This document shows positions 1 to 49,565 of a DNA stretch of 64,000 nucleotides, piece after piece. Source of the DNA: Siphonodentalium dalli (Eukaryota; Mollusca; Scaphopoda; Gadilida; Siphonodentaliidae); NCBI GenBank assembly GCA_032622095.1, contig CP136061.1:232188944-232252943 (forward strand), written 5' to 3'. The position numbers were made by a program, and so were the translations under genes. The notes under the pieces were generated by a model. It did no database searches. It was not told the DNA's origin and saw nothing but the letters and a program-made list of their open reading frames with translations. Position 1 is the first letter of the stretch. Each line of letters opens with the position of its first letter.

Positions 1-245
1 AAAAATCGATATCTGATCACTATGCGCTTTGGTGTGTGGGTTCCTCGTCTCGAATCAAATATATTTTACCCCCGAAGCCAAAGAAATAGTAATTATGGAG
101 CGTCTGATCGGATTGAGTAACTTTAACGTTTGCCTCGCGTAGTTATCTCCCTTTATCTGTAAAAATGTCATTTTAAGATCTCGGAAATTATGAGGAGCAG
201 AACATCGAAAATTGGACAATACCCACATCTCGATATGCCCTATTA
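1..245. other. Flank left of the first palindromic element, no feature seen
   Basis: AT-rich sequence outside the homology between the arms of the 246-6461 palindrome. No coding signature, RNA gene or repeat was recognised. Confidence 0.4.
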
Positions 246-404
246 GTGTAGTGACTTAGCGACAAAATTTTGTCATATTGGAACGGACTGGCCAAAAGTG
301 CCATTTTTTTATATTATGTCAAGTTAGGTGTGCTCTTTCAGAAAGTGAACTAGAAACAGGTTTCTGATCAATATTAACCCTTGTTTCCAGTATAAATCCA
401 AGAT

Positions 405-1400
405 GGCGGCCAAATTCAATCATTATTTCACCATGACATTCCAACTGGTATACAATTTAAGGCACATGCATAATAAAGGCGTCATTCCATCCGGCATTGT
501 CATATTTTGAAGATATTAGCAATCCAGGCTGACCAAATTTGAAAATTATCACTTTTTGGACCAAAAGCATGAAATTTTGTCATAAAATTATTCTCGTTTC
601 AATTATTTCGGAATAATAAACAGACACTTTCTCAAAACTGTTTCAGTGCAGATCAAAGGTTAAGATCTTAAAAATTTCAGAACTGTATACTGCAAACAAA
701 ATATACAACATCTAGGACAAATTCGTAACCATATTTTAGACATTTTGGATTATGTTACCCCTCACCCCAAATATCATGAAATTTTGTTTTTGTGATAAAC
801 ATCCGATATAACATGGATGAGAATCTATAAAGGATACTATTCGATGACATTTCTAAATACTGTAATTGCAATTACACACAAAATGACCAAAGTTGAAATT
901 TACAACTTTTTCGACTAAAATATGCAATTTGGTAAGAAAATCCTCGTCATTTCAAATATTTTGGTCCAATAAATGGTAATTTACACATAGGATATTTGCG
1001 ATAGTTCAAAATATTTGGTCTTAAATATTTTGGACATATATACTGAAAACAATGAATACATATTCTGTGGTCAATATGTAACAACGTTTCAGAAAATTTT
1101 AGTTATGTTACCCCTCGAAAATGTGACTTGGTTGTAAAGATTCAATAAATCTTTGGTTAAATCTTATAAAGTGAGTTTTTCGATGACAATTAGTCATATA
1201 TTGTTATGTAACAATCTCATTGACAGTATACTGTTTAAATTTACAATTGTATGCCTAATAACAGCTATATGTTATTTCAAATCATCATTTCAAATATTTT
1301 CAACCATTATATGGGCAATTTCTCAAACATTTCCCAAGATCGTATACCACATGCGGCCTTGAAAGTTTCGAAAATGACTGTCGAATAGAACACATTTAAA
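405..1400. repeat. Subterminal degenerate tandem repeats of the left arm (mirrored at about 5330-6310)
   Basis: Roughly 340 bp units recur with divergence. Each holds a stretch resembling GTTACCCCTC (near 750 and 1110), a segment about tracing ...TCGTTTCAATTATTT / TCGTCATTTCAAATATTT, and a downstream ACATATATACTGAAAAC-like stretch. The right arm carries the same series inverted, with ATTTTTGGGGTGAGGGG at 5587 and 5943. Internal repetition in both arms suggests subterminal arrays existed before the palindrome formed. Confidence 0.55.
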
Positions 1401-1600
1401 GGTGTATACATGTCATGTCTTGGTGAAATAGAATAAAATTCTAAAAATCTATTATACCATAAATAATTTGAAGGTGTTGACTTATATAATCTACAAATGT
1501 AGCATACAAGAGGGGGTATATATAGACATGTAGTTCAAATCACAACTTTAATTTGTCTATCAATAATACACATAACATAAAGATGGTATATCTGTGTTTA

Positions 1601-2955
1601 GGGTGGATACACACATGCATGTAATCTCTGTAAATATCGTGTATTTGGAGTTTTACATGGATCATACACACCGTGTAATATGTGTCCGCTGACAACCCAA
1701 TCATTACGACTGTGTTTGACCACAGTGAGTTAAACTCTGAACCGCTGAAGAGCCGTTGACTGGGACGAAGTCGTCAGGCCGCTTAAAATAATTATTCGCG
1801 CGATAACTCAAATGGTCGACGTTCTGTTTAAATCATTGTCAGTATTCTATTGATGTTAATACCAGTGATGGCCTCTTCCACAACGCAGGGGGCTATGACC
1901 CCCAACACACACGGGGAGCTATATTATCCCAGAAGCTACCGAATTCACCATTGCATATTTCCTCGACGGGGGTGTGCACGCAGCACCCTGAGTCCTGACA
2001 CCCTGCTTTATAAATATCGTAGTCATGTCTGTCGTGTCTGTTTTCTACGAGTGATTAATCTAATATGCAGCAATTTATGCTATTCATATAATTATGAACA
2101 TATTATACAGCTTTAAATTTGAATGCATGGTGTTGCTGTTTGTCTTCATTCGGCGAAAGGGTTGCCTAGCTACGAGATCCCAACTACGTCACCTTTCATC
2201 TCTTGTGTTATACAGTTATACATGTATACGCAAAATTTACAACTATGGAATATTTAAGTAAAACATATTGTAATTCTTGCCCAGATAATCCTGGCTGATA
2301 CATTCAATTAACTCCCTAGTTATTAGAAGCTTTCGAGAACCAGCCCCTCCCCCAATCATGGATTATGGTCGAAAATGTTATAATTCAAGCTTGTGACAGG
2401 TAGGAGCTTGTTCAACCTTTGGCTTGAGAAACATATATATAAATGGGGGGAGGGTGTCACTCTTTTTAATTTCAACGCTGTACCTGCATTATTTTTTGGC
2501 GCTATAATGAATATTTGCAATCCCAATTGAATTAATGTTATCACATGAGCTCGCTCTCAAATTATCAGAGAAATCTCAACAAGCCGGTATCATCCTATAA
2601 AAGAATTCTGCATATTTTATTTTTGTTTTGGATGACCCTGTTTCCAAGAAATGACAGAAACAAATCAAGTATAAAATCGACCGGCTCTAATCCACTTTTC
2701 GAAGTGAATTATAACTCGTGAAAAACAGCAACATATATCAGACAAGAATTACTCATTTCGGCATCCATGAAAGAAGACATGTTTATGACTGGCCTGAAAT
2801 TTCTTGATGGCAGTTTGTTTGATAATGGCTTATAACTACTCACTGGTGAAATTGACCTCTCGCGCGCAGGTGATTAATTTTGTCAATTATTGGTGTGGCC
2901 ATGTAAAATACATGTATTTTACATACAGACATTACATGCATGTGTGTATCCACCC
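1601..2955 (+). mobile_element. PIF/Harbinger-like non-autonomous element, copy 1
   Basis: The terminal inverted repeats begin GGGTGGATACACACATGCAT and end with the complement. The flanking duplication is TTA (1598-1600 and 2956-2958). TTA matches the TWA target of PIF/Harbinger transposons, and the GGG start fits that group. The right arm of the surrounding palindrome preserves the uninterrupted site with one TTA (complement of 5122-5124), so the borders and the 3 bp duplication are demonstrated rather than guessed. No transposase was recognised inside; the short ORF at 1850-2116 reappears in inverted form in copy 2 (27717-27995) and is probably not a functional protein. Confidence 0.85.
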
Positions 2956-3586
2956 TTATACTCTGTTCTTAAATTCACGTTTGTTATGTTGTACCTGTAT
3001 AACTATAATGTGCACAGTCTGATCATACCAGCGGATATATAGCAACTCATAGATTGTCATGTTATAATCACCGGTGACCATGTTGATACATTGAACAAAT
3101 ATTTTAGGCATTCTTAATATTACAATTACAACTGCATAATTATGTGCATGGTAAATCAGCTATTGCACATTTGCACCTGTTACAAGTTTGGGATTTGCAA
3201 CAACACTTGATGAGTTCTGAACACACAGCTGCAGCTTCTGGTAATGTAGTCCACAATGGTTTACATCCATGATCTTCAACTGTCCATCCCCAGTCATGCG
3301 GGCCATGTATTGGAATTGTTATGTCATGTCAAGTGTACCACAATCCTGCCTGGTATATGGCTCATTTCGTATGCTGTGTTAGGGCCCCTTTTGAGCGACA
3401 AGTTTTGGAGAATTCTCTTCATATGCCTCGTTATCAGCAACTTTTGACAACCTTTATTATAATTAATGTTAATGAAACGTTCGAGTTCTTTGAAAATATA
3501 TGAGGATGAATCTAGTTGAATAAAAGGTTGATTCGCCTATATAAGAAATGTACATTTATCTGTGATAACGGGATAATATTTCCATG

Positions 3587-4240
3587 CTATCCAGAAACTT
3601 TTTCTGCCCTTTATATGGAAGAACAAAGTGGTATCAAAAGCAGATATCGAATGAAAATTGGGTAGTGATAACAATTGTCATCGCCCAGAGCGGAAAATGT
3701 GCTGTTGTCATGGTACAATGTTTTAGTTTTGCCTGTTCCCAGAGAAACACATGTATCACCACCACTGTTAGCATCCGTAAACTTTGAAAACAGACCGATG
3801 ACCATTGCCAGGACATCTGTGTCAACAATCCAAACACGGATGGTCGTCAGCCCACAAGAAAGCGCATGGATAATGTGCGGCACAATTCTAATATCAGCTT
3901 CCTCATATCCTGACAACAGTTTCTCAAGATTTACTAGGAAGAATTTGCTATTTTGAGAGTTGACGAACATTCTGTCATGTTTAACACTTTATCATCATGT
4001 TCTGATGCATTACTTGTCAGGAATACAAAAATTTCAAGCTTATTGTCAGAATGACGGAGGAAGTCGTTCCATTTTTTTGGAATCTTAGTTTGGCCACCAA
4101 CTTTTCGTCCAAGACCTATACCACGATTCTCATTAGTGCTGCCTTTTGTGCTGCCTTCAAAATACCTATCCCACACAACACACATGACATTAACACTTCT
4201 TATTTGTAGAGTAGAAACTTCATTGGTGACTTTAATCATT
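3587..4240 (-). pseudogene. C-terminal half of a repeat-associated metazoan protein (EEADxR / DTDV family), decayed
   Basis: Two overlapping minus-strand reading frames form one decayed gene. The first (4239-3934) contains a WDRYFEGSTKGST block, then GGQTKIPKKWNDFLR and NKLEIFVFL. The second (3970-3611) contains EEADIRIVPHIIHA and VWIVDTDVLAMVIGLF, then FGTGK-like SLGTGKTKTLY. After one more frameshift near 3660, a block resembling the family motif HAxxGCDTTSxFxGKGKxxxW follows (ISAFDTT, IKGRKSFW). This order matches a large uncharacterised protein family seen in cnidarian, mollusc and other animal genomes. I infer a PIN/XPG-like nuclease fold from the spaced acidic motifs, but have not shown it. 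At least two frameshifts make it non-functional. It lies in the left arm of the palindrome; the matching N-terminal half is on the opposite strand at 4309-4792. Confidence 0.7.
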
Positions 4241-4308
4241 AAAAGTACATGTAGATCCTATCGCAGGCACAATTATATGCACAAGAACGCCTCCATATAA
4301 TATCTTGC

Positions 4309-4792
4309 ATGTACTTCCAATATTTTATTTCTTGTAATAGTGTGTTCGAACAACATTTGGGCAGTTCAAAAAACCCGAAATCGCTTCTCCGCTATTCCAA
4401 ACGATCAAGTGCAGGAACAGGAGAACATCAAATTGAAAGGAAATGGAGGGTTGATAGGTTTAACAGAGAGCTCATCAACAATAACGAGATGGCTAGAACT
4501 CCCCGAACCAGACTTGTTTTTCTCTCATGAGAGTCGGCTATTTCCCCCGCTTTCTAGTATCAACGGGAGGTAAATTCAAGGGGACACAATCTGATTTGCT
4601 GGGATGTATCCGGGAATCAATTGGAGATATATCGAACCCACCTAAAAATGTTCAGTGCAAGATATTTGATGGAGGCATTCTTGTGGATATGATTGTACCT
4701 GCGATATAGTATCTACTTTTAATGATTACGCCCAGTCACTAATGAAGTTTCTACTCTACAGACTAAGAAGTTTTACTGTCATATATATGTAG
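4309..4792 (+). pseudogene. N-terminal/middle part of the same repeat-associated protein, decayed
   Basis: The plus strand encodes, with frameshifts, the part of the family that precedes the EEAD/DTDV region. Frame starting 4340: RFSAIPNDQVQEQENIKLKG then LIGLTESSSTITRWLELPE, matching the family signature FSAIxxDQxHEQNNxxxKGxGGxxGLTxxPxxxxRW. Then SHESRLFPPLSS; after a shift near 4565, GGKFKGTQSDLLGCI and KIFDGGILVDMIVPA. After another shift at 4709, VSTFNDYAQSLMKFLLYRLR. That endpoint abuts, in protein order, the WDRY block of the minus-strand half at 4240. The two halves therefore belong to one ancestral gene now split between opposing palindrome arms. Family function unknown. Confidence 0.7.
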
Positions 4793-6461
4793 TGTGGGAC
4801 ATATGAAACGAGCTGCCTACCAGGTATAATTGTGGTACACTTGTCATGCCAACTTGCCAAGCTGCAGCTGTGTGCTCAGAACTCATTAAGTGTTGTTGCA
4901 AATCACAAACTTGTAACAGATGCAGATGTGTAAACGCTGACTTACCATACACAGAGTTATGTAGATGTAATTGTGTGCTTAAAATATTTGTTCAACGTAT
5001 AAACACAGGCAGCGGTGATTATAACATGACAATCTATGAGTTGCTATCTATCAGCTGGTTTTATCAGTCTGTGAACATTATAGTTATATAACATAACAAA
5101 CATGAATTTAAGAACACAGTATAAACAAAGATAGACCATCTTTATGTGTATTATTGATTGACAATCTAAAGTTGTGACCTGAAATGCATATCTATATATA
5201 CACCCCTCTTGAATGCTAGATTACACAAGTCAATGATATTGGGTCAAATATATCCATTAATGGTATTATAGATTCTTTTATTTTTATTGTATTTCACCAA
5301 AACATTACATGTATATACCCTTATATGTGGTGTATATATATTTGATGATCATTTTCGAAACTTTTAAGACCGCATATTGTATATTATTGCATATTGCCAT
5401 TCTATTGGTTGAACATATTTGAAATGATCAAATAAATTGTTATTAGGCATACAATTGTTAATTTCAACAGTATACTGACAATGAGATTGTTACATTATAA
5501 TATATGACGAATAGCGATCGACAAACTCACTTTATAAGATTTAACCAAAGATTTATTGAATCCTTACAACAAGTCACATTTTCGTGATTTTTGGGGTGAG
5601 GGGTAACATAAACCAAGTTTTCTGAAACGTTGTTACATATTAAACACATACAATGTATTAATCGTTTTCAGTATATATGTCCAAAACATATAAGACCGAA
5701 CATTGTGAACTATCGCAAATATCCTATGAGTAAATGACCATTTATTGGACCAAAATATTTGAAATGAAGAGGATTTTCTTACAAAATTGCATATGTTTTG
5801 TCGAAAAAGATGTTATATTTCAACTTTGGTCATTGTGTATGTAATTGCCATAGCAGTATTTAGAAATGTGATCAAATAGTGTCCTTTGTAGATTCTCATC
5901 CATGTTCTATCGAATGCTTATCACAAAAACAATATTTCATGATTTTTGGGGTGAGGGGTAACATAATCCAAAATTTCTAAAATACGGTTAAGAATGTGTC
6001 CTAGATATTGTATGTTTTGATTAGAGTATACATGTCCAAAAATGCTAAGATCTTAACCTTTGATCTGCACTGAAACATTTTTGAGAAATTGTCTGTTTAT
6101 TATTCCGAAATAGTTGAAACGAGAATGATTATATGACAAAATTGCATGTTTTTGGTACAAAAAGTGATAAATTTCCAATTTGGTCAGCCTGGGTTGCTAC
6201 TATCTTCAAAATATGACAATGTCAGGTTGAATGACGCCTTTATTATGCATGCGCCTCAAATTGTATACCAGTTGGAACGTCAGGGTGAAATAATGATTGA
6301 ATTTGACCGCCATCTTGGATTTATACTGGAAACAAGGGTTAATATTGATCAGAAACCTGTTTCTAGTTCACTTTCTGAAAGAGCACACCTAACTTGACAA
6401 AATATAAAAAAAATGGCACTTTTGGCCAGTCCGTTCCAAAAAAAACGCTAAGTCACTACAC

Positions 6462-7370
6462 TATATTAGCCACGGGCATCAAAACTTCTACCCGCGCTTT
6501 CGCTGTGGAGTTACCGCCCATAGATAGGCACACATTCCAGATAACTGCATTTGGTTTTCACAGTCGTGTTGATCCCTGTCAGTCAGTGCGAAAACCAAAC
6601 TGGGCAGGTTCGGTACAATATTTTTTTTACATTGGTGGGGGTGGAATGATTCGAATGTTTATCGTGACGAAACTCGTTTATTCGTCTATTTAGGTCTATA
6701 GATTCCCAGAGTCCAGCTGATCATACACCAAGAAAGATTATTTTAATCTGAGTGGAAATACCAGAGTTGTGGGCAATCGGCTTGTCGTCGTTTCTCCTAT
6801 AAACGGACAAACATTGGAGACCATCACATACTTCTAAGCGTCCGGAATAAATAGTGCTCCGTACTATGCGCCAAATTTTGACAATGTCGGTTCCGTATTG
6901 TAGGTCTGGGGAGGGGTGGTCAGTGGGACAAAATTGTGTTCTTGTCCTAATCGAAGGAAACTTAGAATCTAATATCTACAGCCAAAGCAGATCACGAAAC
7001 TGAAAACAGATCTTAAATCCGGTGGAAAATGACGGAGATTTGGGGCATTCACAGTTTGCAATTATATATGGCACACGAACTTGACAACACAACTCCTCCG
7101 AAACTGTCTAACATTGCCTGGCATTTGATACGCCAATGCGTACGGACTGAAGAGAGCATGCGGTATGTCACATTTTGCCAGTGTCGGTTCAGTATTGTGG
7201 GTCTGGGGAGGGGTGGTCGGTGATATCAAAATGACATTCGTCTCCAAAACAGATGACGCGTTAAATCTGATAACATTCATGTATTCGGGTTTATTACGCC
7301 ACCTGTGGTGTTTCTAGCTTCTGAGATTTTGATATTGCGTGGTGGACAGGGCGAATGTATTCTTGGAGAT
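6462..7370. repeat. Unannotated stretch with a ~55 bp direct repeat (6882-6935 and 7169-7222)
   Basis: The two copies share a core around GTCTGGGGAGGGGTGGTC preceded by ACAATGTCGGTTCCGTATTG-like sequence. Nothing else was recognised; the short ORFs at 6394-6693 and 7029-7223 show no family signature. Confidence 0.45.
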
Positions 7371-22902: not shown

Positions 22903-23996
22903 ATGGAGTTCGACGAGAACGACGAGTCATATCTATATAACCCCATATCCGAGGAAGAAATTTATAGGAAAGCTGAACAATTGCAAGGCCGGAGGTACTG
23001 ATCAAATAATTAACGAACATATTATGGCTTCAGTAAATGAGATGATGCCTATTCACGTTTGCCTTTTTAACCTGGTCCTAAATAGTGGATTATTTCCCCA
23101 AGATTGGGCAGTTCGTCTAATACAGCCCATTTATAAGGGGTCGGGTGACCCAAATATATATATATATGCCAGAGTCTTACCGAGGTATCAACACTTTTGA
23201 TCTGTTTAACTCCGTTTTAGATAACCAATTGACCTCATTTGCAGAGGATATTGATTTAATCAGTAAGTCACAAACTGGATTTCGCAAAAGCCACTCCACT
23301 GTTAATATTATATTTATACTACATGCATTGATAAATATATACCTTCAGAGCGAACGGAAACAATACTGTACGTTTATTGATTTCAGCAAAGCTTTTGATA
23401 CTGTGTGGAGAGATCCACTATGGCTCAAATTGTTGAAATCAGATATAAACGGTAAGATTTTGCGGGTAATACGAAGCATGAATATTGAATATTAAATTAT
23501 GCGTAAAAAAATATAACTCACAGTCAGACTTTTTCGTGAGCAAGGTAAGTTTATTTCAAGGTGAAACAATGTCACCTTTCTTATTTTCCCTCTTCGTGAA
23601 CGATTTACAGAGGGTTTTTTAATGATTGTGCAAAAGAAAATCTGAATTTCAGATAGACGAAACAAATTTATTTTGCCGAGCATTTAGGATGGTACATCGA
23701 TATACTGTGCCTATTATATGCGGCTGGCACTGTCATTCTATCAGATTTAGGGGGAAATGTGAATCGCACACTATTAGCGTTTGCTAATTATGCTGAAGCT
23801 TGGAAACTTGAGGTGAAACATTAATAAGACCAAAGCAATTGTTTTCGCAAACAAGTTACCAAGAAATTTTCCTCTTTTCACATATAAATTGGCAGGGAAT
23901 ACAAATTGTAAAGGAATTCAGATACCTTGGGATTAATGTTTTCTACAATGGGAGATTTTGTCAGTACATAACGTGTACCACAAATACTGCGACAAA
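22903..23996 (+). pseudogene. LINE reverse transcriptase fragment, copy A
   Basis: Starts at EFDENDESYLYNPISEEEIY and continues through GGTDQIINEHIMASV, NSGLFPQDWAVRLIQPIYK, SQTGFRKSHSTVNIIFILHA and CTFIDFSKAFDTVWRDPLW, then FxGETMSPFLFSLFVNDLQ and KTKAIVFANKL...KEFRYLGINVF. This is the usual order of the fingers and palm of a non-LTR (CR1/Jockey-like) reverse transcriptase. Reading requires several frameshifts (for example near 22978, 23140, 23500 and 23650). The catalytic YADD box is replaced: the frame around 23706-23722 reads LLYAAGTVIL. Inactive. It shares the first ~730 bp with copy B, about 1.35 kb downstream. Confidence 0.85.
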
Positions 23997-24248
23997 GGCA
24001 ATGTAAACCCCCGTGTACGTGATATCACCAAACCCGAGGGTATCACCAAACCAGATCATGAAGTTTTGATAAATGATCATATCTTCCCTCAGAATAATCT
24101 ATATATCTCCCAGTTAAATGGTGTTATCCACTATTCAAAACATAATTTCGCAAAGCGGAATGTTCTCTCAATGGAACCATAGCTTGCACTCACCCCGATA
24201 AATTTAATAGAAATTCCGGCTCATTTCCGGCTCATTTCCATTGTAGAT

Positions 24249-24960
24249 ATGGAGTTCGACGAGAACGACGAGTCATATCTAAATAACCCCATATCCGAGG
24301 AAGAAATGTATAGTGCCATAGGGAAGCTGAAAAAAAATTCAAGGTTGGAGGTACTGATAAAATTATTAACGAATATATTAAGGCTTCAGTAAATGGGATG
24401 ATGCCCATTCACGTTCGCCTTTTCAACCTGGTCCTAAATAGTGGATTATTTCCCCCAAGATTGGGCAGTTCGTCTAATACAGCCCATTTATAAGCCCAAA
24501 TATGCCAGACTCTTACCGAGGTATCACACTTTTGAGCTGTTTAACTCCGTTTTAGATAACCGATTGATCTCATTTGCAGAGGATATTGATTTAATAAGTA
24601 AGTCACAAACCGAATTTCGCAAAAGCCACTCCACTGTTGATAATATATTTATACTACATGCATGGATAAATATATATCTTCAGAGCGGACGGAAACAATA
24701 CTGTACGTTTATTGATTTCCGCAAAGCTTTTGATACTGTGTGGAGAGATGCACTATGGCTCAAATTGTTGAAATCGGATATAAACGGTAAGATTTTGAGG
24801 GTAGTACGAAGCATGTCTACGAATATTAAATTGTGCGTAAAAAAATGTAACTCACAGTCAGACTTTTTTGTGAGCAAGGTAGGATTATTTCAAGGTGAAA
24901 CAATGTCTCCTTTCTTATTTTCCCTCTTCGTGAACGATTTACAGTGTTTTTTTAATCCTT
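24249..24960 (+). pseudogene. LINE reverse transcriptase fragment, copy B
   Basis: The second copy of the same LINE segment starts at the same EFDENDESYL point (24249). The long open stretch 24441-25022 carries WAVRLIQPIYKPKYA, then SQTEFRKSHSTVDNIFILHA, CTFIDFRKAFDTVWRDALW and FQGETMSPFLFSLFVNDLQ. Homology stops near 24955, before the YADD region, after which unrelated sequence follows. A frame change near 24335-24460 separates the beginning. The order and motifs are those of a CR1/Jockey-like reverse transcriptase; truncated at both ends. Confidence 0.85.
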
Positions 24961-25287
24961 TGTCCATAGTATGTATGTATGGACATGGGTACTATGACTA
25001 TCTTTTTGTGCCTGGGTCCTAACCTAACTACATGTATTGTAGGCTAGGTCCATGGCTAACATATTGGTGGCTGGCCCTATGTTCTTCATATATAGTAGAG
25101 TGGGTTCGTGACTTACATTATACATCTAGCTGTGTGGGTCTATGTATATAACGTTTATGGTCATGCCTCATATTAAATATAAGCAACAACTTTTCTACTC
25201 TCACTTTGAATTCCCGATATCTGAACTGATGGAGCATAGCGGATAATTGTACCATATGAAAACTAAATTTGTAGAACATTCTGGTTA
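24961..25287. other. No feature recognised
   Basis: Begins at the break of LINE copy B with ATGTATGTATGGACATGG-type sequence. No gene or repeat seen. Confidence 0.3.
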
Positions 25288-25740: not shown

Positions 25741-26728
25741 AAGAGCCTGTCGCGAATGTCGCCACATGTGAAAATGAGCAGTAGCGTATAAGGAACATAT
25801 GTGCCAAGTTTCATGCTTTTATCACCATTTTCGCAGTTGTGGGGTTTTCTACAACAAGCGCTTGGACTAGCGGAAGAGCATTATGTGACGAGAGCCAGTT
25901 TAGGGGGTATTGTTGTGTTTTTACAAGTAGTAGTCACTTATCATAAGTATAGTGGCTAAATCCACATATGATATTGAAGGAGTGATATCTATGCATTTTT
26001 TAAAGCAAATTGCTCGCGCTTACGTAATGACTAGCCCGAGAAATTTGACATCGAATAACGACAGTTTGTCTGAAAAAATCGTCATTATGTTATTTTATAT
26101 CCATATCTACGAAATTCATTCCAATTCCCCCCGATGAATTAAATTCTCTTGTTCGAGAATTGTGTATTGAACAATATTGAGTACATTTGGTATATGCTTC
26201 GGCTGAACAAAATTTATACCATCCCATTATTCCCATGATTGTGAAAAATATAAGTTTGTTTTTTTATATGGAATAAATGGTATTTAATCAGAAAGCTCAA
26301 CTCGGATTTTAGGGGACTTTTCGTGTCGCGTCCGCGATGATATGGCCTAAATAATATTTTTAAAAATCAGCTTTCCCCGATTTATTTCCTTACTTTTCCC
26401 CATTCACGTCTAATGTGCCTGGACTATAACGTCCGTATGGACCATATTCCAATACAAAACTTGGGAACTTTTTGATATGCTGACCCGTTATGACAGGGAA
26501 CTTTATAACATCGAACAAACAAGGCAGTGAAAATATATATTTGTTAATACTTGTTCCTCAATAATCTACTTCACATTAGGGGTGGTATCAGCTCGATATT
26601 ACATGCTTTACTGTGACTATTGTGAACCGATATCGCAATAAACATTGAATTAATTATCCAAGAGAAATTCCATAATTGTAAGCGACGCAACCCAAAATGG
26701 CGCACAAAGTCAATTATATCGTGTATTA
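25741..26728. other. No feature recognised
   Basis: AT-rich sequence without a convincing ORF or repeat; contains AAAATGGCGCAC near 26694. Ends at TTA, the target of the next Harbinger-like copy. Confidence 0.3.
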
Positions 26729-28075
26729 GGGTGGATACACACATGCATGTAATTTATGTATGTAAAATCCATGTATTTTACATGGTCACACCAATTATTG
26801 ATAGCATTAGTCGGCTGCGCGCGATCTGACAATTTCAACAGGCGAGACAAGTGAGCAGTTATAAGCCATTATCAAACTAACTGCTATCAAGAAATTTCAG
26901 GCCAGTCATAAATTCTTTCATGGATACCGAAATGAATAAGTCCTGTCTGACATATGTTGCTGTTTTTCACGAGTTTTAATTCATTTCTAAAATTGGAATT
27001 GAGTCCGTCGATTTTATACTTGATTTGTTTCTCGTCATTTCAGGGTCATCCAAAATAAAAATAAAATGTGCAGAATTTGAATCTCTTTTAGGGCGATTGT
27101 GATACACGAGTGTTCAATGTCCCATTAAAGGCACGTGAGGCCTTAGTTGTCGAAAATATTTATATTTGTTCCAATCACCGTAAACAGAAAAACATTAAAA
27201 TGCATACAGTTTCGTTCATATATACCATGACCATCGCGTAAACAGCATGTTATCATAAAGATTTACTATATTTTACCTAAGCAAGAGCCTGATTGTGTTA
27301 CAGAAGACAGCACAATGCTGCTGGCTAATCACACACAAATGGCATAAACGCTCTTTATTCGTTCCATATCAGGAATTCACCAACAAAGAACGCTCTTTGT
27401 GTTTACCATCATAATATAAACAAACACCAGAAAAGTAACTTTTTATGCCTTTGTTTACATAACAATGGTCAAATATATGACAACAACATACTGTTTATGC
27501 GATATTTCTTATGTATATACGAACAAAGTCTGTCTACATTTTGTTGTTCTTTCTGTTTGTGGCGGTTTTTGACGGGTGGAAATATTTTCACAGGATACCC
27601 ACCGCCAAGGCCAACCGTACCTTTAACAATCCGATATGGTGCTCTCATGCCTTGAATAACAGGTATTTGAAAAATAAGACAGACATTACCGGTTCGTTGA
27701 GATTCCTCGGATAGTTTCAAAGCGAGCTCATGTGATAACATTCAATTGGGAACTCGTAGAGCCAGACAACCCTTTTCCCCGAATGAAGACACACAGCAAC
27801 ACTACCTTCTGTACTCTCAAAATTTAAACCTGTAATACTATGTTCATAATTATATGAATAGCATAAATTGCTGAATATTAGATTAATCACTCGTAGCAAA
27901 CAGATACGAGAGAAATGACTCTCGAGATCTGCACGTTCAGGGCTTGGCTCACTGTGGTCAAACATAGCCGCAATGATTGGGTTGTCAGCGGACACATATT
28001 ACATGGTCTGTATGATCCATGTAAAACGACAAATACACGACTTTACAGAGTTTACATGCATGTGTGTATCCACCC
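26729..28075 (-). mobile_element. PIF/Harbinger-like non-autonomous element, copy 2 (inverted relative to copy 1)
   Basis: GGGTGGATACACACATGCAT starts at 26729 and the complement ends at 28075. The left subterminal sequence (TACATGGTCACACCAATTAT) matches the right end of copy 1, so the orientation is reversed. Flanks are TTA and TAA, one mismatch from a TWA duplication. The length (1347 bp) is close to copy 1 (1355 bp). A shared internal segment encodes VINLI-SNLCYSYNYEH in both, probably by chance conservation rather than function. It contains no transposase I can recognise. Confidence 0.85.
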
Positions 28076-28099
28076 TAAATCGAGTTGGGTTCTTCACCT

Positions 28100-34202: not shown

Positions 34203-35998
34203 TCTATTATATATTTTGAAAGATCTGTGTGTGTATGTATGTGTTTGTTTGTGTGTGTGTGTGTGTGTGTGTGTTTGAAATCGATGGAATCCAAAACGAC
34301 TAAGCCAATTTCGATGAAACTTGGTATTTGGATGTGTTTTCGGCCGGAGACGAACATAGGCATATTTATTTGTCCGTGCGAGGTCAACTTTTCACGTGCG
34401 GAGGTCAAATCTATTTTTACACCGTTTTGCGCTAATATATTTCAGTTCGGTGCTCACAAATCGATTCGATATAGCGCGAATAATAAATTGCCAGTCATAT
34501 AATTTGCACGGTTAGAATCTGTGGCGTTTCCTCTTTCCAACGATATATAATATGTATGTCTCCGTTTTAGTTATCTGCCTCAATTATTAGGTACAAGTGG
34601 TACGATGCTTTTATCAGGATAAAATCAATGCGTAATTTCTATGACGTCGTCAGAGGTCATAAAGTTAGATTACGTTAACTCTCACCCTGCCGATGCATTT
34701 GACTGTGTCGCGTTAACTCATCACCGGCCGAGGTATCCGCAAATGACATTGGGCTATATATCTCGGAAACGGGTGTAGCTATCGACTTGAAATTTGGTAT
34801 GTGAATGTATCTTGCCCCGGATACGAATTTTATCGGGTCGCCGAGCACTTGCGACGCCAGCTTCGCGCATGCGCAGACGAGATCTCGGAAACGGGTTGAG
34901 ATATTGACTTTAAATTTGGTATGTGAATGTATCTTGCCCCGGATACGAATTTTATCGGGTCGCCGAGCACGTGCGACACCAGCTTCGCGCATGCGCAGAC
35001 CAGATCTAGGAAACGGGTGGAGCAATCGACTTGAAATTTGGTTTTTTAATAGCCCGGACGAAGTCGGGTCACCTTCTAGTCTATTATATATTTTGAAAGA
35101 TCTGTGTGTGTATGTGTTTGTTTGTTTGTGTGTGTGTGTGTGTGTGTGTTTGAAATCGATGGACTCGAAAACGACTAAGCCAATTTCGATGAAATTTGGT
35201 ATTTGGATGTGTTTTCGGCCGGAGACGAACATAGGCATATTTATTTGTCCGTGCGAGGTCAACTTTTCACGTGCGGAGGTCAAATCTATTTTTACGCCGT
35301 TTTTGCGCTAATATATTTCAGTTCGGTGCTCACAAATCGATTCGATATAGCGCGAATAATAAATTGCCAGTCATATAATTTGCACGGTTAGAATCTGTGT
35401 GGCTTCATCTTTTCAACGATATATAATATGTATGTATCCGTTTTAGTTATCTGCCTCAATTATTAGGTACAAGTGGTACGATGCTTTTATCAGGATAAAA
35501 TCAATGCGTAATTTCTATGACGTCGTCAGAGGTCATAAAGTTAGATTACGTTAACTCTCACCCTGCCGATGCATTTGACTGTGTCGCGTTAACTCATCAC
35601 CGGCCGAGGTATCCGCAAATGACATTGGGCTATATATCTCGGAAACGGGTGTAGCTATCGACTTGAAATTTGGTATGTGAATGTATCTTGCCCCGGATAC
35701 GAATTTTATCGGGTCGCCGAGCACGTGCGACGCCAGCTTCGCGCATGCGCAGACGAGATCTCGGAAACGGGTTGAGATATTGACTTTAAATTTGGTATGT
35801 GAATGTATCTTGCCCCGAATACGAATTTTATCGGGTCGCCGAGCACGTGCGACACCAGCTTCGCGCATGCGCAGACCAGATCTAGGAAACGGGTGGAGCA
35901 ATCGACTTGAAATTTGGTTTTTTAATAGCCCGGACGAAGTCGGGTCACCTTCTAGTCTATTATATATTTTGAAAGATCTGTGTGTGTATGTGTTTGTT

Positions 35999-36038
<40 letters not shown>

Positions 36039-38435
36039 AAATCGATGGACTCGAAAACGACTAAGCCAATTTCGATGAAATTTGGTATTTTAGGGTATTT
36101 TCGGCCGGAGACGAACATAGGCATATTTATTTGTCCGTGCGAGGTCAACTTTTCACGTGCGGAGGTCAAATCTGTTTTTACGCCGTTTTGCGCTAATATA
36201 TTTCAGTTCGGTGCTCACAAATCGATACGATATAGCGCGAATAATAAATTGCCAGTCATATAATTTGCACGGTTAGAATCTGTGTGCCTTCATCTTTCCA
36301 ACGATATATAATATGTATGTATCCGTTTTAGTTATCTGCCTCAATTATTAGGTACAAGTGGTGCGATCTTTTATCAGGATAAAATCAATGCGTAAATTCT
36401 ATGACGTCGTCAGAGGTCATAAAGTTAGATTACGTTAACTCTCACCCTGCCGATGCATTTGACTGTGTCGCGTTAACTCATCACCGGCCGAGGTATCCGC
36501 AAATGACATTGGGCTATATATCTCGGAAACGGGTGTAGCTATCGACTTGAAATTTGGTATGTGAATGTATCTTGCCCCGGATACGAATTTTATCGGGTCG
36601 CCGAGCACGTGCGACGCCAGCTTCGCGCATGCGCAGACGAGATCTCGGAAACGGGTTGAGATATTGACTTTAAATTTGGTATGTGAATGTATCTTGCCCC
36701 GGATACGAATTTTATCGGGTCGCCGAGCACGTGCGACACCAGCTTCGCGCATGCGCAGACCAGATCTAGGAAACGGGTGGAGCAATCGACTTGAAATTTG
36801 GTTTTTTAATAGCCCGGACGAAGTCGGGTCACCTTCTAGTCTATTATATATTTTGAAAGATCTGTGTGTGTGTGTGTGTATGTGTTTGTTTGTGTGTGTG
36901 TGTGTGTGTGTGTTTGAAATCGATGGACTCGAAAACGACTAAGCCAATTTCGATGAAATTTGGTATTTTAGGGTATTTTCGGCCGGAGACGAACATAGGC
37001 ATATTTATTTGTCCGTGCGAGGTCAACTTTTCACGTGCGGAGGTCAAATCTGTTTTTACGCCGTTTTTGCGCTAATATATTTCAGTTCGGTGCTCACAAA
37101 TCGATTCGATATAGCGCGAATAATAAATTGCCAGTCATATAATTTGCACGGTTAGAATCTGTGGCGTGTCCTCTTTCCAACGATATATAATATGTATGTA
37201 TCCGTTTTAGTTATCTGCCTCAATTATTAGGTACAAGTGGTCCGATGCTTTTATCGGGATAAAATCAATGCGTAATTTCTATGACGTCGTCAGAGGTCAT
37301 AAAGTTAGATTACGTTAACTCTCACCCTGCCGATGCATTTGACTGTGTCGCGTTAACTCATCACCGGCCGAGGTATCCGCAAATGACATTGGGCTATATA
37401 TCTCGAAAACGGGTGTGGCTATCGACTTGAAATTTGGTATGTGAATGTATCTTGCCCCGGGTACGAATTTTATCGGGTCGCCGAGCACGTGCGACGCCAG
37501 CTTCGCGCATGCGCAGACGAGATCTCGAAAACGGGTTGAGATATTGAATTTAAATTTGGTATGTGAATGTATCTTGCCCCGGATACGAATTTTATCGGGT
37601 CGCCGAGCACGTGCGACACCAGCTTCGCGCATGCGCAGACCAGATCTAGGAAACGGGTGGAGCAATCGACTTGAAATTTGGTTTTTGAATAGCCCGGACG
37701 AAGTCGGGTCACCTTCTAGTCTATTATATATTTTGAAAGATCTGTGTGTGTGTGTGTGTATGTGTTTGTTTGTTTGAAATCGATGGACTCCAAAACGACT
37801 AAGCCAATTTCGATGAAATTTGGTATTTTAGGGTATTTTCGGCCGGAGACGAACATAGGCATATTTATTTGTCCGTGCGAGGTCAACTTTTCACGTGCGG
37901 AGGTCAAATCTATTTTTACGCCGTTTTTGCGCTAATATATTTCAGTTCGGTGCTCACAAATCGATTCGATATAGCGCGAATAATAAATTGCCAGTCATAT
38001 AATTTGCACGGTTAGAATCTGTGTGGCTTCATCTTTCCAACGATATATAATATGTATGTATCCGTTTTAGTTATCTGCCTCAATTATTAGGTACAAGTGG
38101 TACGGGGATCTTTTATCAGGATAAAATCACTGCGTAACTTCTATGACGTCGTCAGAGGTCATAAAGTTAGATTACGTTAACTCTCACCCTGCCGATGCAT
38201 TTGACTGTGTCGCGTTAACTCATCACCGGCCGAGGTATCCGCAAATGACATTGGGCTATATATCTCGGAAACGGGTGTAGCTATCGACTTGAAATTTGGT
38301 ATGAATTTTATCGGGTCGCCGAGCACGTGCGACACCAGCTTCGCGCATGCGCAGACCAGATCTAGGAAACGGGTGGAGCAATCGACTTGAAATTTGGTTT
38401 TTGAATAGCCCGGACGAAGTCGGGTCACCTTCTAG
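34203..38435 (-). repeat. Five tandem units of ~880 bp in reverse orientation
   Basis: Units start at 34203, 35080, 35956, 36840 and 37720 (lengths 877, 876, 884, 880, 716). Each runs from CTATTATATATTTTGAAAGA through a (GT)n stretch of variable length, GAAATCGATGGA(C/A)TC, an AACTTTTCACGTGCGGAGGTC block, TATGACGTCGTCAGAGGTCA, one or two copies of a ~124 bp sub-unit containing CTTCGCGCATGCGCAGAC, and AGCCCGGACGAAGTCGGGTC to CTTCTAG. The last unit has lost one sub-unit. Units are almost identical, so the array is recent or homogenised. Open frames in both strands of all units are artefacts of the repeat. Confidence 0.9.
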
Positions 38436-41597: not shown

Positions 41598-42546
41598 TAT
41601 TCCAACCAAAATTGGTGTGGGGACTCGGGTACCCTGGTTGATGCACCATTACAGCGTTAGTTTGTAAAAAATTTGGATTAAACAAATTGTTTTGTTAAAT
41701 TGATCAAGGAGTTCAATCTTAAAACAAATAATCAATTTTTGGTTCGTTTTTAAATCAAAATGTTTAAACGATCAAAATATGCGCGAAGGGACCGCCGCTG
41801 AATAAAGGCTATTTCTAAGGCAGCATTCAAGCCCCCTAACACACACAGTGGGATGCCGGCACCCCCCCCCCCCCCAACGCTGAATAAATTAGCCTGTTTC
41901 AGCTAGTATACCATAAAATAGTAAGTCAAAAAGTAAGTTGCCCCAGTACCGAAATGATTGCGACTACTAATTTAGACTTCTTCGGCATCAGATTCTGTAA
42001 TTACCAATGCGTACTCACCGGTATTGATTGGAGGCGCCGTCGAAACCAATCCTAGAGCAAACATACAACATATAAATTTGTCAACGCAACTCATCATGTT
42101 TCATGGAGTATTGACATTACATGTATGGAAAACACAGAAACGTTCCAGGAGAAATGTATTCATTCACTGATCCGTTCATACGCATGCAACCGAGTATCAA
42201 ATATAGAGCTTTAGGTTGTAAAACTGCAACATTAACACTTGGGTTAGATTGCTATTTAGAAATATTCTTGTCGCGAAAGCATCTCATGATTATTATATCC
42301 AAGTAAACATTCAACGTTGAAATGACCGGATGAATTTACGGAAAACAAACTGCGAACCATGTACCCGATGCTATATATCTGGTTCGTAATATATTACTAA
42401 TAGCGATGCTATCCGTTCTAATTGGCTTCCATTTATAACTCAATACATCCTGTTTGACAAGGCTCACATAACGATAATTCGGTCACGTTGCGACATTAGT
42501 TGAAAAGAACTTCCTTGTTCTGCATGAGAAAATATTTCTATGTTAT
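41598..42546. other. No gene recognised; poly-C run near 41862
   Basis: A run of about thirteen C is present at 41862-41874. ORFs such as 42121-42306 have no family support. Confidence 0.3.
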
Positions 42547-43388
42547 GGGTGGATACACACATGCATGTAATATCTGTATGTAAAATACATGTATTTTACA
42601 TGGCCACACCAATAATTGACAACATTGATCACCTGCGCGCGAGCGGTTCATTGTTAACAGGCCAGACAAGTGAGTTGTCATAAGCGAAGTCAAACTCTCT
42701 ATTATCAGGACATTTAAGGCCAGTCCAAAACAGGTCGTCTCTTATGGATGTGGAAATTAGTTAAGTCTGTGAGATATCTGGCATTTTATTAATGCACGAA
42801 CACCAGAAGCGACATATCTGGTGTCTACAGGCTTGATATAGAACATTTTCGACCATGATGCTTGCTTGGCGTGTGGTTTCGAAAGCTTCAAATCGTTAAG
42901 GGACTTAGTTGAATGTATCGGTCGGAATAATCTGGGCAAAAAGGTACAATATAATATGTTTTACTTAAATAGCTCAGAGTTAGCCACCCCACTTTGTAGC
43001 GTTCCGGATCATATATAGCCTCAAGTCGGGGATCATATAAGCCCCTGCGTAAGAAATCCTGATAATATCCGCCATCATGTTGGGGATCATAGCCCCTGCG
43101 TTGGGGAAATCCTGGGGCCCATCACCTGTATAAAAATCAAGAGAAGACTGACAATGATTTAAACATAAAGTCCAACATTTGGGTTATCGCGCGAACAATT
43201 ATTTTAAGCGGCCTGACGACTTCGTTCAGTCAATGGCTCTCTGCACGCTCAGAGCTTGGCTCACTGTGGTCAAACATAGCCGCAATGATTGGGTTGTCAA
43301 CGGACACATATTACATGGTCGGTGTGATCCATGTAAAACGCCAAATACACGATAATTACAGAGATTACATGCATGTGTGTATCCACCC
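42547..43388 (-). mobile_element. PIF/Harbinger-like non-autonomous element, copy 3 (shorter)
   Basis: GGGTGGATACACACATGCAT starts at 42547 and the complement ends at 43388 (842 bp). Orientation is as copy 2. Flanks are TAT on both sides. Relative to copies 1 and 2 the interior is deleted, but ends and internal words such as TTTACTTAAATA (shared with copy 1 as its complement near 2260) are retained. Confidence 0.85.
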
Positions 43389-43468
43389 TATAAACCTTAA
43401 AGTTATAAATAAACGGAAAAAGTGTTGAGGTTTATGACTATGTAACTATATTCATCAGGATATCGCGC

Positions 43469-46817: not shown

Positions 46818-46997
46818 ATATAATATATGGAATTGAACGACAGTCAATCACTAATTGCCACCATTATCGTTAGATCTATATATATGCATGTAGAACATGA
46901 TATGTAAAGTTTGGAATGTCCTGCGTATTTATTTTCCTATATACTATATACATTAACAAACTGTATTTGACTTATTCTATATACATGTAATATATAA
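46818..46997. repeat. Direct repeat, left copy (partner 49566-49745)
   Basis: About 180 bp starting GGAATTGAACGACAGTCAAT and ending near TAATATATAA, closely matching 49566-49745. The left copy is interrupted at its end by Harbinger-like copy 4. Confidence 0.8.
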
Positions 46998-47788
46998 GGG
47001 TGGATACACACCTGCATGTAATCTCTGTAATTATCGTGTATTTGGCGTTTTACATGGATCATACAGACACTGTAATATGTGTCCGCTGACAACCCAATCA
47101 TTGTCGACGTGTTGACCGCACTGAGTTTTAGTTTCAATTAAGTCGCAACGAAGAGAAACCGCTATTTTGGACCGAGTCGCCAGGCCACTTAAAATAATTG
47201 TTCGTGCGATAACTCATATGGTGGACTTTCTGTTCAAATAATTTCTAGTCATCTCTTGATATTTATAGCAGTGGTGGGTCCGTATGTCCCTGACGCAGGG
47301 GCTATATATATAGTCCCCAACTTGGGGCAATATGATCCCGAAAGCTATCATGCGGGGTGGATAACTCTGAGCCATTTCAAGGGGTGCTTTACACGATTTT
47401 CAATAAATTCTATGATAACAACGATTTAATATCGACAATATATAGAAAACTAAATTTTCAATGCCTGTTATTCAAGACATCACAGCACTATGTATGTTTG
47501 TTAAAATTTGTCGCTTCTGGTGTTCGTGCATTAATAGCATGCCAGATATAACACAGACTTGATTAATTTCGGCATCCGTGAGAGAAGACATGTTTTGGAC
47601 TGGCCTTAAATTTGCTGATAACAAACAGTTTAAATTGGCTTATCACTATACTCACTTGTCTGGCCTGTTAACAATGAACCGCTCGCGCGCAGGTGATCAC
47701 TGTTGTCAATTATTGGTGTGGCCATGTAAAATACATGTATTTTACATACAGCGTATTACAGAGATTACATGCAGGTGTGTATCCACCC
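46998..47788 (+). mobile_element. PIF/Harbinger-like non-autonomous element, copy 4 (shortest)
   Basis: GGGTGGATACACACCTGCAT starts at 46998 and its complement ends at 47788 (791 bp); orientation as copy 1. Flanks TAA and AAA. Next to the left end lies the 180 bp repeat whose second copy at 49566 lacks the insertion. Inside, from 47380 to about 47450, the sequence departs from copies 1 and 3 and instead matches the end of the TTAA element at 51375. Confidence 0.85.
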
Positions 47789-49565
47789 AAACACCCGATC
47801 GACCTTCTATATATACTTTCTGTGAAATTACGCATTTATGAGCCAGAGTAACGTGTTTAGCTGCAGATAGTGGGCACATGCTTAATCACTATACGCTCTC
47901 TAAATTCGAATAAATATTTTCAAACCAATGTTTAGTTATCTTCATTCTATCTGCATGTTTAATACCATACAAGATCTATTCGAGAATTTTAACAAACGAA
48001 ACTGGGGGGGGGGCCTGCAATCAGCCAATCACCACCATTCGCACGGCAAGGCATCTCGAACATAAACAAAAACATTGCGGTACTATATTTCGCTTGGTTT
48101 TGAATTCGCGCATTTTGAATTCGCGCACCTAGCTGCGCGAATTCAAAACTGACAACAATATTTTCCAAAAAGATTTGGATTTATTCTCAGAGATACTCAA
48201 TTGAAATAGTTAAAGACATCATTGGAATAAACTCGAAAAAAGTAAATCCACAGCCACATACCAGTCAGCTGACTTCAGAAAAAGCAACACTTGGCTGAGG
48301 GTTGTGTTGGCATAAATAATTCAGTCTGTTTGGTCATGGTGTCACTGCATGCAGCGTTGATAAAAAGGGGGCGTATACTTCCGTGCGCCTTCGGCCTGGC
48401 ACATGTATATTTCAACACCGTCGATGTTACCATAATTTGTTGCTTTGCATAGTTATGATTAATGATTTTTATGTTGGTCACCGGCATGTAATATATATCC
48501 GTATAAAACAGGTATAGTTGCCTATATTCAGTCCAGCCTTCCGTATAATGTATATAACTTATCAACATATACATCTGCTTTCCCCTGTGGTTCGCTATAA
48601 ACATCCCGGTGTCATATTTGTGTGAAATATAGGAAATTGGGACAATATATTATACACCGAATCTGATCATCTCGGTGATAAAATGTACGAAATTGGACAA
48701 ATTGCACTTACTCGTTTGACTACGACTAATGAATTATAATAACTTTTAATGGAATTACTTCATGCCGCCCAGTTTCTGGAAAAAAAATAGTTTTACCTAT
48801 AGTGAATTATTTTTGCGTTTGAGTGGGTATATTTCTAAAGAACATGCTTCGTCATCTTTTAATTAGTCTGAGTGATCCAGGCATGTGAAATCTATTAGTA
48901 AAAAATTTCTAAATTTCAGTGTAATTATACTGCCATTATTTTATAGTGAACAAAGCTCAACGCAGATGAAGGTGAGGTTTTAACATGTTCTTGATGTTTA
49001 TCAGCCAAGTCAAAATTACAATGATCGTACCTGATAAAAATTGTCGATGATTTCGTTTCCCAAAAGCAGTGGACGATAAAGAGCTTCTCAATATGGGTTT
49101 CGTTTATTACACTGGCAAGTTTGTATGGCATTTTTTCAGGCAATTTCTCAGACTATATATATGCCAGAATATGAACGGCAACATACGTATACATTGCATG
49201 TTTACCAAAGCTAACGACATGTGGAGTAAAATTTTGGTAGTTCCACATGTAACGGTGCTGTTAACACATTGCTTCAAAATACCTGTATGATTTATTCTTT
49301 CGAGATAAGTTCATGATATTTACTGGCAAATTTCGATACTAGTGGAACTAAATAGTTTTTACTTCTCTTACTAGCTGTGGTATAGATGCATTTTATAAGC
49401 ATTTATACATTCTGTTTCTGGTACATTGTATAGCTTTCTGTACCGAAATTCCTGCAAATGAATGCCTGGCAAATTTGCGAGTGTATGAACGTACCCTTAT
49501 GCTCGTTTGTTCTCGTGACCACACGACCCAGGTTGTCCAATATTTTGAGTAAATATGTTTATATT
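47789..49565. other. No gene recognised; hairpin at 48097-48149
   Basis: The hairpin pairs GTTTTGAATTCGCGCA (48097-48112) with TGCGCGAATTCAAAAC (48134-48149); a direct copy of the left arm (48113-48127) lies in between. A short G run is at 48004. ORFs at 48275-49290 have no domain signal. Confidence 0.4.

What the first reader, a model, noticed from the sequence alone, without database searches (positions are those of the whole stretch)
246..6461. Giant palindrome in which each arm carries a different half of one gene
The arms of this 6.2 kb foldback pair along most of their length. The plus strand at 4309-4792 reads the front part of a known but uncharacterised animal repeat-associated protein family (DQxxEQ...KG, GTxSDLLxC, DGxxxVxMxxP, TFxDYA), stopping just where the minus strand at 4240-3587 resumes (WDRY...STKGST, EEADxR, DTDV, GCDTT-like). 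This fits an ancestral head-to-head inverted dimer in which each copy later lost the opposite half (the right arm lost about 790 bp at the joint matching 3382-4168).
Basis: partly seen in the sequence, partly recalled or inferred. Interest (0 to 1): 0.75.

Follow-up and report, generated by a model that had tools for sequence, protein, structure and literature searches.

The report
Transposon folded into a repeating palindrome
This is one of many copies, in what looks like an animal genome, of a broken jumping gene that once copied its own back end in reverse onto its front, giving a mobile palindrome; at least three other jumping-gene lineages in the same genome did something similar separately.

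Summary
The palindrome is real. It is a complete DNA-transposon insertion at 244-6463 with 18-bp inverted ends, a 3-bp target duplication (TAT) and an unrelated 1,355-bp insert nested in the left arm. The dimer history needs correcting. The whole centre recurs at 35 other places, 94-98% identical to the window's, among 40 scored of 365 candidates, so this is a mobile family. The left arm need never have had the front half; the right arm lost an internal 795-bp block but keeps the C-terminus. At least three further head-to-head palindromes, from separate lineages with different breakpoints, were read. In the one lineage with a diagnostic tip base, the palindrome read carries one 5'-type and one 3'-type tip. 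That favours an inverted duplication inside a single element, probably by template switching at the inverted ends during repair, over two joined elements. Closest known: maize Mu killer and Foldback/Galileo elements. Academ membership is untested by sequence.

The parts
241..243 (.). target-site duplication, left copy (TAT)
   Evidence: matching 3-bp duplication in 16 of 17 copies with both ends read, window included
244..261 (+). terminal inverted repeat, left (TAGTGTAGTGACTTAGCG)
262..277 (+). left-only tip (ACAAAATTTTGTCATA), inferred remnant of the native 5' end
   Evidence: found in all 19 left tips recovered from 21 copies, with variants in L012, L017, L026 and L027; L019 and L024 gave no left tip
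278..1600 (-). left arm, outer part (inverted copy of the 3' tail, with repeats about 355 bp apart)
1601..2955 (.). nested unrelated MITE-like insert, 33-bp inverted ends, TTA duplication (1598-1600 / 2956-2958)
   Evidence: absent from 20 of 20 other copies fetched
2956..4309 (-). left arm, inner part; carries the transposon gene from about aa 1125-1135 to its C-terminus
3125..3907 (-). gene fragment = aa 1267-1528 of L049 protein (EEAD, DTDV, GCDTT-like, Cys-rich C-terminus), with stops and frameshifts
   Evidence: E=4e-34
4015..4209 (-). gene fragment = aa 1165-1229 (VVWDRY...)
4310..4655 (+). single-copy centre (spacer), continuing the right arm's gene; junction with the left arm at 4309/4310
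4346..4495 (+). gene fragment = aa 880-929 (DQxxEQ...KG)
   Evidence: E=5e-10
4517..4700 (+). gene fragments = aa 1086-1099 and 1107-1145; aa ~930-1085 missing
   Evidence: E=1.5e-4
4656..6439 (+). right arm; 795-bp loss at 4799/4800 and about 82-bp loss at 4858/4859 relative to the left arm
4879..4971 (+). gene fragment = aa 1498-1528 (Cys-rich C-terminus) in the right arm
6440..6445 (-). right-only tip (run of T on the minus strand), inferred native 3' end
   Evidence: found in all 19 right tips recovered from 21 copies; L010 and L015 gave none
6446..6463 (-). terminal inverted repeat, right
6464..6466 (.). target-site duplication, right copy (TAT)

Best explanation
The feature is a non-autonomous DNA transposon, one copy of a mobile family. 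It descends from an element that encodes a ~1,530-aa uncharacterised protein, presumably its transposase. In the founder, an inverted copy of the 3' part of the element (end, tail, and gene from about aa 1125-1135 to the C-terminus) was laid down behind the native 5' tip, replacing the 5' part. The result was a head-to-head palindrome with a short single-copy centre that still had one 5' and one 3' tip. The likely event is interrupted gap repair. A strand copying inward from the 5' tip switched, at the shared inverted ends, to the 3' end of the template and copied back inward from there. The other side copied normally from the 3' end further in, and the two were joined. The right arm lost 795 bp and the palindrome was amplified, presumably in trans. 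SHOWN: palindrome, ends, duplications, shared gene, family, palindrome older than its spread, similar palindromes in three further lineages, tip bases in one lineage. INFERRED: native-tip assignment in the window lineage, template switching, gap repair, trans-mobilisation, and the role of the protein.
For: Ends and 3-bp duplication: 16 of 17 copies with both ends read. Family: 36 places with at least 1,444 of the 1,501 centre bases, window included, the others 94-98% identical to it, from 40 scored of 365 candidates; 221 left tips with at most one mismatch, backwards control 0. Arms 88.4% alike, while left-left is 97.1% and right-right 97.7% over 15 copies; left is no closer to its own right arm than to other right arms, so the palindrome predates the spread. 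Gene: both halves in one 1,534-aa frame, inside an element bracketed by TAGTATAGCGGCTAAGACC-type ends; of 8 facing end pairs within 12 kb, 7 (7.9-11.9 kb) hold a listed gene hit. Recurrence: of 150 gene hits (of 151 matches; 150 of 2,885 candidates scored), neighbours within 5 kb are head to head in 6 of 6 cases; within 10 kb 7 head to head, 1 tail to tail, 3 direct; about 0.1 pairs expected at random. These six are not six births: L051 and L053 are one family, and L050 shares its ends with the unread C1 pair. Four palindromes were read (L050-L053), three lineages besides the window, arms 91-94% alike, with TAGT-type ends (one end of L052 starts TTGT) and matching 3-bp duplications. Breakpoints differ, and the arms group by lineage on a tree. 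Tips: 8 of 9 L050-type elements with both ends and one gene hit are 5'=GCAAC and 3'=GCAAA, and palindrome L050 has one of each. In all five palindromes read (window included) the ends differ just inside the inverted repeat.
Against: The tip type in L050 rests on one base of a 20-base pattern; one of nine elements (C8:70267378) has 3'-type tips at both ends, and the unread palindrome at C1:217245255 has one end of neither type. The sequence behind the 5' tips of normal elements was not read. No normal-length element with the window's own ends was identified, so tip assignment in this lineage is by analogy. Target duplications of intact elements could not be read. Gap repair itself was not observed; fold-back priming at a broken end would leave a similar centre. 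No domain of the protein is recognised, so calling it a transposase rests on position. One facing end pair (C1:162594825-162599618, 4.8 kb) holds no listed gene hit. L052 has a more complicated centre with a further insertion.
Confidence: 0.68

Rival explanations
1. True head-to-head dimer: two separate elements inserted or recombined in opposite orientation, their 5' ends were lost at the joint, and the pair then moved as one unit with its two outer 3' ends.
For: Overall anatomy; head-to-head arrangement in 6 of 6 close gene pairs. One L050-type element (C8:70267378) does have two 3'-type tips.
Against: Palindrome L050 has one 5'-type and one 3'-type tip although both ends flank gene 3' ends, though by one base; in all five palindromes read the ends differ just inside the repeat.
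Confidence: 0.16
2. Fold-back priming: a broken 5'-truncated element folded its own 3' strand back at a short match and copied itself, leaving the centre as the loop.
For: A single-copy centre of about 0.3-1.3 kb in the window, L050, L051 and L053, with sharp inner edges.
Against: Does not by itself supply a native 5' tip at the new end, so a second step is needed.
Confidence: 0.12
3. Ordinary long-inverted-repeat transposon of Foldback/Galileo style whose long ends are its native state, with gene pieces captured by chance.
For: Long arms containing repeats about 355 bp apart, as in Foldback-like elements.
Against: The arms include the element's own gene body; L049, an element of normal length, shows no long inverted repeat in the part read (its first ~1.5 kb was not read); the lineages have different inner breakpoints.
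Confidence: 0.03
4. Assembly artefact: a falsely folded or mirrored contig.
For: Palindromes are a known assembly hazard (general knowledge).
Against: Arms are about 12% diverged and the same centre is found at 36 places; the fetched copies have different flanks and 3-bp duplications.
Confidence: 0.01

Closest known systems
Mu killer (maize, derived from MuDR)
   Same: Internally deleted, partly duplicated transposon whose two ends both come from the same element end and whose partial transposase copies form an inverted duplication (PMC3440606, abstract and passages).
   Different: Mu killer is described there as one locus that silences MuDR (those authors favour antisense RNA over a long hairpin as the main agent). 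Here the palindrome is a mobile family and similar ones exist in three further lineages; silencing is not tested. Mu killer copies the end next to mudrA and 1.3 kb into that gene; here the gene's 3' end is duplicated.
Foldback / Galileo long-inverted-repeat elements (Drosophila)
   Same: Long inverted arms, variable arm structure, defective copies attributed to aborted repair, slippage or template switching (PMC4168063, passages).
   Different: Galileo is a P-superfamily element with 7-8-bp duplications; here duplications are 3 bp and the arms are the element's own gene and 3' tail.
Academ superfamily, AcademX lineage
   Same: 3- or 4-bp target duplications and an associated nuclease, as stated for AcademX in PMC10045372 (passage).
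   Different: No Academ sequence was available; no domain was detected. Curated bivalve Academ elements average 5,565 bp (PMC10294476, passages), shorter than the 7.9-11.9 kb elements here. Membership not established.
Pack-TIR elements made by gap filling or fork-stalling template switching
   Same: Template switching during repair inside inverted-repeat transposons, with later multicopy spread (PMC8277862, passages).
   Different: Those capture host sequence, and that paper finds breaks within elements rather than excision behind most single-copy cases; here the element re-copied its own 3' end.

Membership tests
TIR DNA transposon (class II) | short terminal inverted repeats plus fixed-length target duplication | tested here: met
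   18-bp ends; 3-bp duplication in 16 of 17 copies with both ends read, window included
TIR DNA transposon (class II) | dispersed copies with precise ends | tested here: met
   36 places with the centre; of 20 fetched copies, left end found in 18 and right end in 18
AcademX | 3-4 bp target duplication | tested here: met
   (palindromic elements only; intact elements not read)
AcademX | XPG-type nuclease domain (recalled as the lineage's mark) | tested here: inconclusive
   Pfam and PDB searches found nothing reliable; resemblance of EEAD...DTDV...GCD to FEN/PIN nucleases is by eye and from memory
AcademX | sequence similarity to Academ transposase | not testable with these tools
   no Repbase or animal protein library available; Kojima 2020 (PMC7165386) not held
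Foldback/Galileo | long inverted arms making up most of the element | tested here: met
Foldback/Galileo | P-superfamily transposase and 7-8-bp duplication (Galileo) | tested here: not met
   3-bp duplication; no Pfam domain found in the intact relative
Mu killer-like inverted-duplication silencer | inverted duplication of part of the element's gene between element ends | tested here: met
   that the gene is the transposase is inferred
Mu killer-like inverted-duplication silencer | hairpin or antisense RNA that silences the autonomous element | not testable with these tools
   no RNA data
Two-element inverted dimer | both outer ends are of the same native type | tested here: inconclusive
   Not met in palindrome L050 (one 5'-type and one 3'-type tip, by one base); not directly tested in the window lineage

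The most novel reading that the evidence does not exclude
This transposon superfamily makes palindromes as a regular by-product of its own transposition: the switch just inside the inverted ends, perhaps driven by the encoded nuclease-like domain, keeps producing mobile hairpin-capable derivatives, which act as dispersed Mu killer-like brakes on the autonomous elements.
Probability: 0.17. Interest if true: 0.78.

Novelty: new variant of a known kind. Interest (0 to 1): 0.52.

Why it matters
It gives a natural series of at least four separate palindromes (the window's and three more lineages) in one transposon group, with end tips that point to a template switch at the inverted repeats. That makes a long-standing question testable: how long-inverted-repeat (foldback) elements and Mu killer-like silencers arise. 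Because the palindromes contain inverted pieces of the element's gene and the window's family has spread, they are candidates for hairpin RNA that restrains their parents. The work also places an uncharacterised, abundant protein family (2,885 first-look candidates, 150 scored) inside inverted-repeat DNA transposons: 7 of 8 facing end pairs of one type hold a listed gene hit.

Tried and rejected
Searches without result: Pfam and NCBIfam on the broken pieces, PDB on the window fragment, Pfam and PDB on the intact protein, a profile of 12 C-terminal domains against PDB, and each of those 12 against Pfam (best E 0.033, three unrelated families, taken as chance). Viral contigs and GTDB genomes gave no relative. 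Six motif words are in no held paper; an earlier search with shorter words listed only noise. Paper searches on foldback elements, gap repair, Mu killer and head-to-head elements listed Galileo, Pack-TIR and Mu killer papers; in the listings and passages seen nothing described recurrent palindromes of this group, which says nothing beyond those searches of that library.

Rejected: assembly artefact (arms ~12% diverged, many loci); homogenisation of the arms by conversion (left arm no closer to its own right arm than to others); a single loss explaining everything (an ~82-bp loss and a gap in the front piece also exist). Structure prediction was not attempted: the stated rule does not cover loci from whole-genome searches, and the window's own fragment is too broken. 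Genome searches to enlarge the head-to-head count (protein of L050) and to count right tips did not complete (for the tips; 99, 101, 103, 104, 106, 108, 111, 113, 115 for the protein), nor was the longer left-tip pattern.

Notebook slips: the second checkpoint gives 17 of 18 for the 3-bp duplication; the recount is 16 of 17. The fifth lists the eight conforming L050-type elements without the ninth, which does not conform. Six rows (L011, L012, L013, L021, L025, L028) were read after shifting the printed edge by eye to the TAGTG start; L052 and L053 likewise. On rechecking, the tip count became 8 of 9 and the bracketed count 7 of 8, and I lowered the main confidence from 0.72 to 0.68 and raised the dimer rival from 0.13 to 0.16. 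One search was a faulty run (a culling option hid hits), replaced.
Full report
WHAT IS THERE. The window lies in a 2.23-Gb genome in 9 contigs, unnamed; that it is an animal is inferred from size and gene content. Self-comparison of 1-6700 confirms one large inverted repeat: 244-1600 with 5122-6463, 2956-3237 with 4859-5124, 3322-3373 with 4800-4851, and 4169-4309 with 4656-4799. The left arm is interrupted at 1601-2955 by an insert with its own 33-bp inverted ends and a TTA duplication. Three related inserts lie elsewhere in the window, and none of the 20 other palindrome copies fetched carries it. Relative to the left arm, the right arm lacks 3374-4168 (795 bp) and 3238-3320.

ENDS AND FAMILY. 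The centre (3300-4800) has 36 matches covering at least 1,444 of its 1,501 bases, window included, the others 94-98% identical, among 40 scored of 365 candidates. Twenty other copies were fetched with flanks. The left end was found in 18 of these 20 and the right end in 18 of 20. The ends are an 18-bp inverted repeat TAGTGTAGTGACTTAGCG with a 3-bp target duplication of varying sequence in 16 of 17 copies with both ends read, window included; L023 is the exception. Across the centre (2956-5121), 15 of 20 copies have no insertion or deletion of 10 bp or more against the window and 5 have small ones; none has the missing 795-bp block in the right arm; mean pairwise identity of the 21 is 97.8%. 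In 15 copies with both outer arms, left arms are 97.1% and right arms 97.7% alike between copies, but left versus right is 88.4% whether own or other. The palindrome was therefore formed once, well before its spread, and the arms have not been homogenised. The left tip occurs 221 times in the genome with at most one mismatch (100 places listed); the backwards control gives 0.

THE GENE. That query found 2,885 first-look candidates in the genome, 150 scored, with open frames up to 1,534 aa. The window's plus strand carries aa 880-929, 1086-1099 and 1107-1145 and reaches VVWD at 4799; the minus strand carries aa 1165-1229 and 1267-1528. The C-terminus is present in both arms (to 3125 on the minus strand; 4879-4971 on the plus strand). 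In the right arm the frame breaks off directly after VVWD, while the left arm continues VVWDRYF, so the 795-bp difference is a loss on the right. No library recognises the protein.

NORMAL ELEMENTS. The 3' end of the L032/L033 homology gave the pattern TAGTATAGCGGCTAAGACCAAAAAT. Its 50 matches in the genome (backwards control 0) include 8 facing pairs within 12 kb. Seven of these, 7.9-11.9 kb long, each contain one gene hit, among them the L049 frame; the eighth (C1:162594825-162599618, 4.8 kb) contains no listed hit. Only L049 was read, without its first ~1.5 kb, and it shows no long inverted repeat there. Target duplications of these elements could not be read.

RECURRENCE. Among 150 of the 151 gene matches, adjacent hits within 5 kb are head to head in 6 of 6 cases; within 10 kb there are 7 head to head, 1 tail to tail and 3 direct; about 0.1 pairs are expected at random. 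These pairs are not all independent. Four of the seven were read. L050 has arms 1878-4050/4346-6511, 94% alike, duplication CTA. L051 has 1497-3731/5066-7527, 91-94%, AAA. L053 belongs to the same family as L051 (94% over 5.5 kb), 1475-3674/5008-7208, TAT. L052 has 1450-3146/6373-8067, 91%, TAA (L052 and L053 duplications read with a shifted edge). The ends are TAGT-type, except that one end of L052 starts TTGT. Gene breakpoints differ: window about aa 1125-1135 left and 870-880 right; L050 about 850 and 940; L051/L053 1034 and 594; L052 1062 and 1209 (the window's edges also). On a tree of aa 1160-1528 the two arms of L050 and of L052 are sisters (0.997 and 1.0) and the four arms of L051/L053 form one group (1.0); the window's left arm stands alone; the types are separated by long branches. 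So besides the window's, at least three further lineages formed palindromes.

THE TIPS. For L050-type ends, 37 matches were listed. Nine elements have both ends listed and one gene hit of known direction: in 8 of 9 the end on the gene's 5' side reads GCAAC and that on the 3' side GCAAA; the ninth, short one (C8:70267378-70269799) has GCAAA twice. The difference is the last base of the pattern. The L050 palindrome, in which both ends flank gene 3' ends, reads GCAAC on the left and GCAAA on the right, so it appears to keep one native end of each kind. A second palindrome with these ends (C1:217245255-217249881, not read) is listed with GCAAC and GCACC. In the window, L051, L053 and L052 the two ends also agree nearly or fully over the first 18-19 bases, differ for a few to about 16 bases, and then agree again. 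In the window the left-only piece is ACAAAATTTTGTCATA, present with small variants in all 19 left tips recovered. This is what a switch from the 5' tip to the 3' end just inside the shared repeat would leave.

MODEL. Inferred: during repair of a gap or break in an element, a strand that had copied the 5' tip re-annealed at the 3' inverted end and copied the tail and gene inward. The opposite side copied the same end further. The two were joined, leaving a single-copy centre (346 bp now in the window, 295 bp in L050, about 1.33 kb in L051/L053). The product kept both transposition signals and could be moved by proteins of intact relatives. Fold-back priming is the main mechanical rival; joining of two elements is disfavoured by the tips but not excluded in the window's lineage. 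Precedents for template switching in inverted-repeat elements were seen in passages of PMC4168063 and PMC8277862.

WHAT IT RESEMBLES. Mu killer has both ends derived from one element end and partial transposase copies in inverted order (PMC3440606, abstract and passages). The present elements have that architecture but are mobile and multicopy in the window's family, and similar ones recur. A silencing function is possible and untested. A 3-bp duplication fits AcademX (3-4 bp; passage in PMC10045372), but no Academ sequence could be compared. The resemblance of the C-terminal motifs to FEN/PIN nucleases is from memory and by eye.

VERDICT. It is a new variant of a known kind (foldback or Mu killer-like derivative), made more interesting by its spread and its repeated separate origin.

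Noticed in passing
window 1601-2955, 26715-28079, 42533-43390, 46993-47812: A MITE-like family with near-identical 33-bp inverted ends (GGGTGGATACACACATGCATG...) in four copies (coordinates of the last three are BLAST edges and include some flank); the nested one has a TTA duplication, which would fit PIF/Harbinger (recalled)..
   Followed up: partly
L015 (C1:44697595-44704985), about 4041-4369: A different 329-bp insertion at nearly the same site in another palindrome copy as the window's nested insert; it matches nothing in the window.
   Followed up: partly
window 34675-37777: Near-identical open frames on both strands repeat about every 880 bases, apparently a tandem array.
   Followed up: no
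window 23145-25022 and 60185-60763: Open frames resembling non-LTR reverse transcriptase pieces (DFSKAFDTVW-like), by eye.
   Followed up: no
window 530-1116 and 5580-6186: Each arm holds diverged direct repeats about 355 bases apart (68-71% alike), older than the palindrome.
   Followed up: partly
G000 C8:70267378-70269799: A 2.4-kb L050-type element with 3'-type tips at both ends and a single gene hit; a possible true dimer product or short derivative.
   Followed up: no
G000 C6:145798138, 145814539, 145830937: Three palindrome copies spaced about 16.4 kb apart in the same orientation, suggesting a tandem segmental duplication.
   Followed up: no
L049 8711-9499 (-): An open frame of tandem C2H2 zinc fingers lies about 1.7 kb beyond the 3' end of an intact element.
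   Followed up: no
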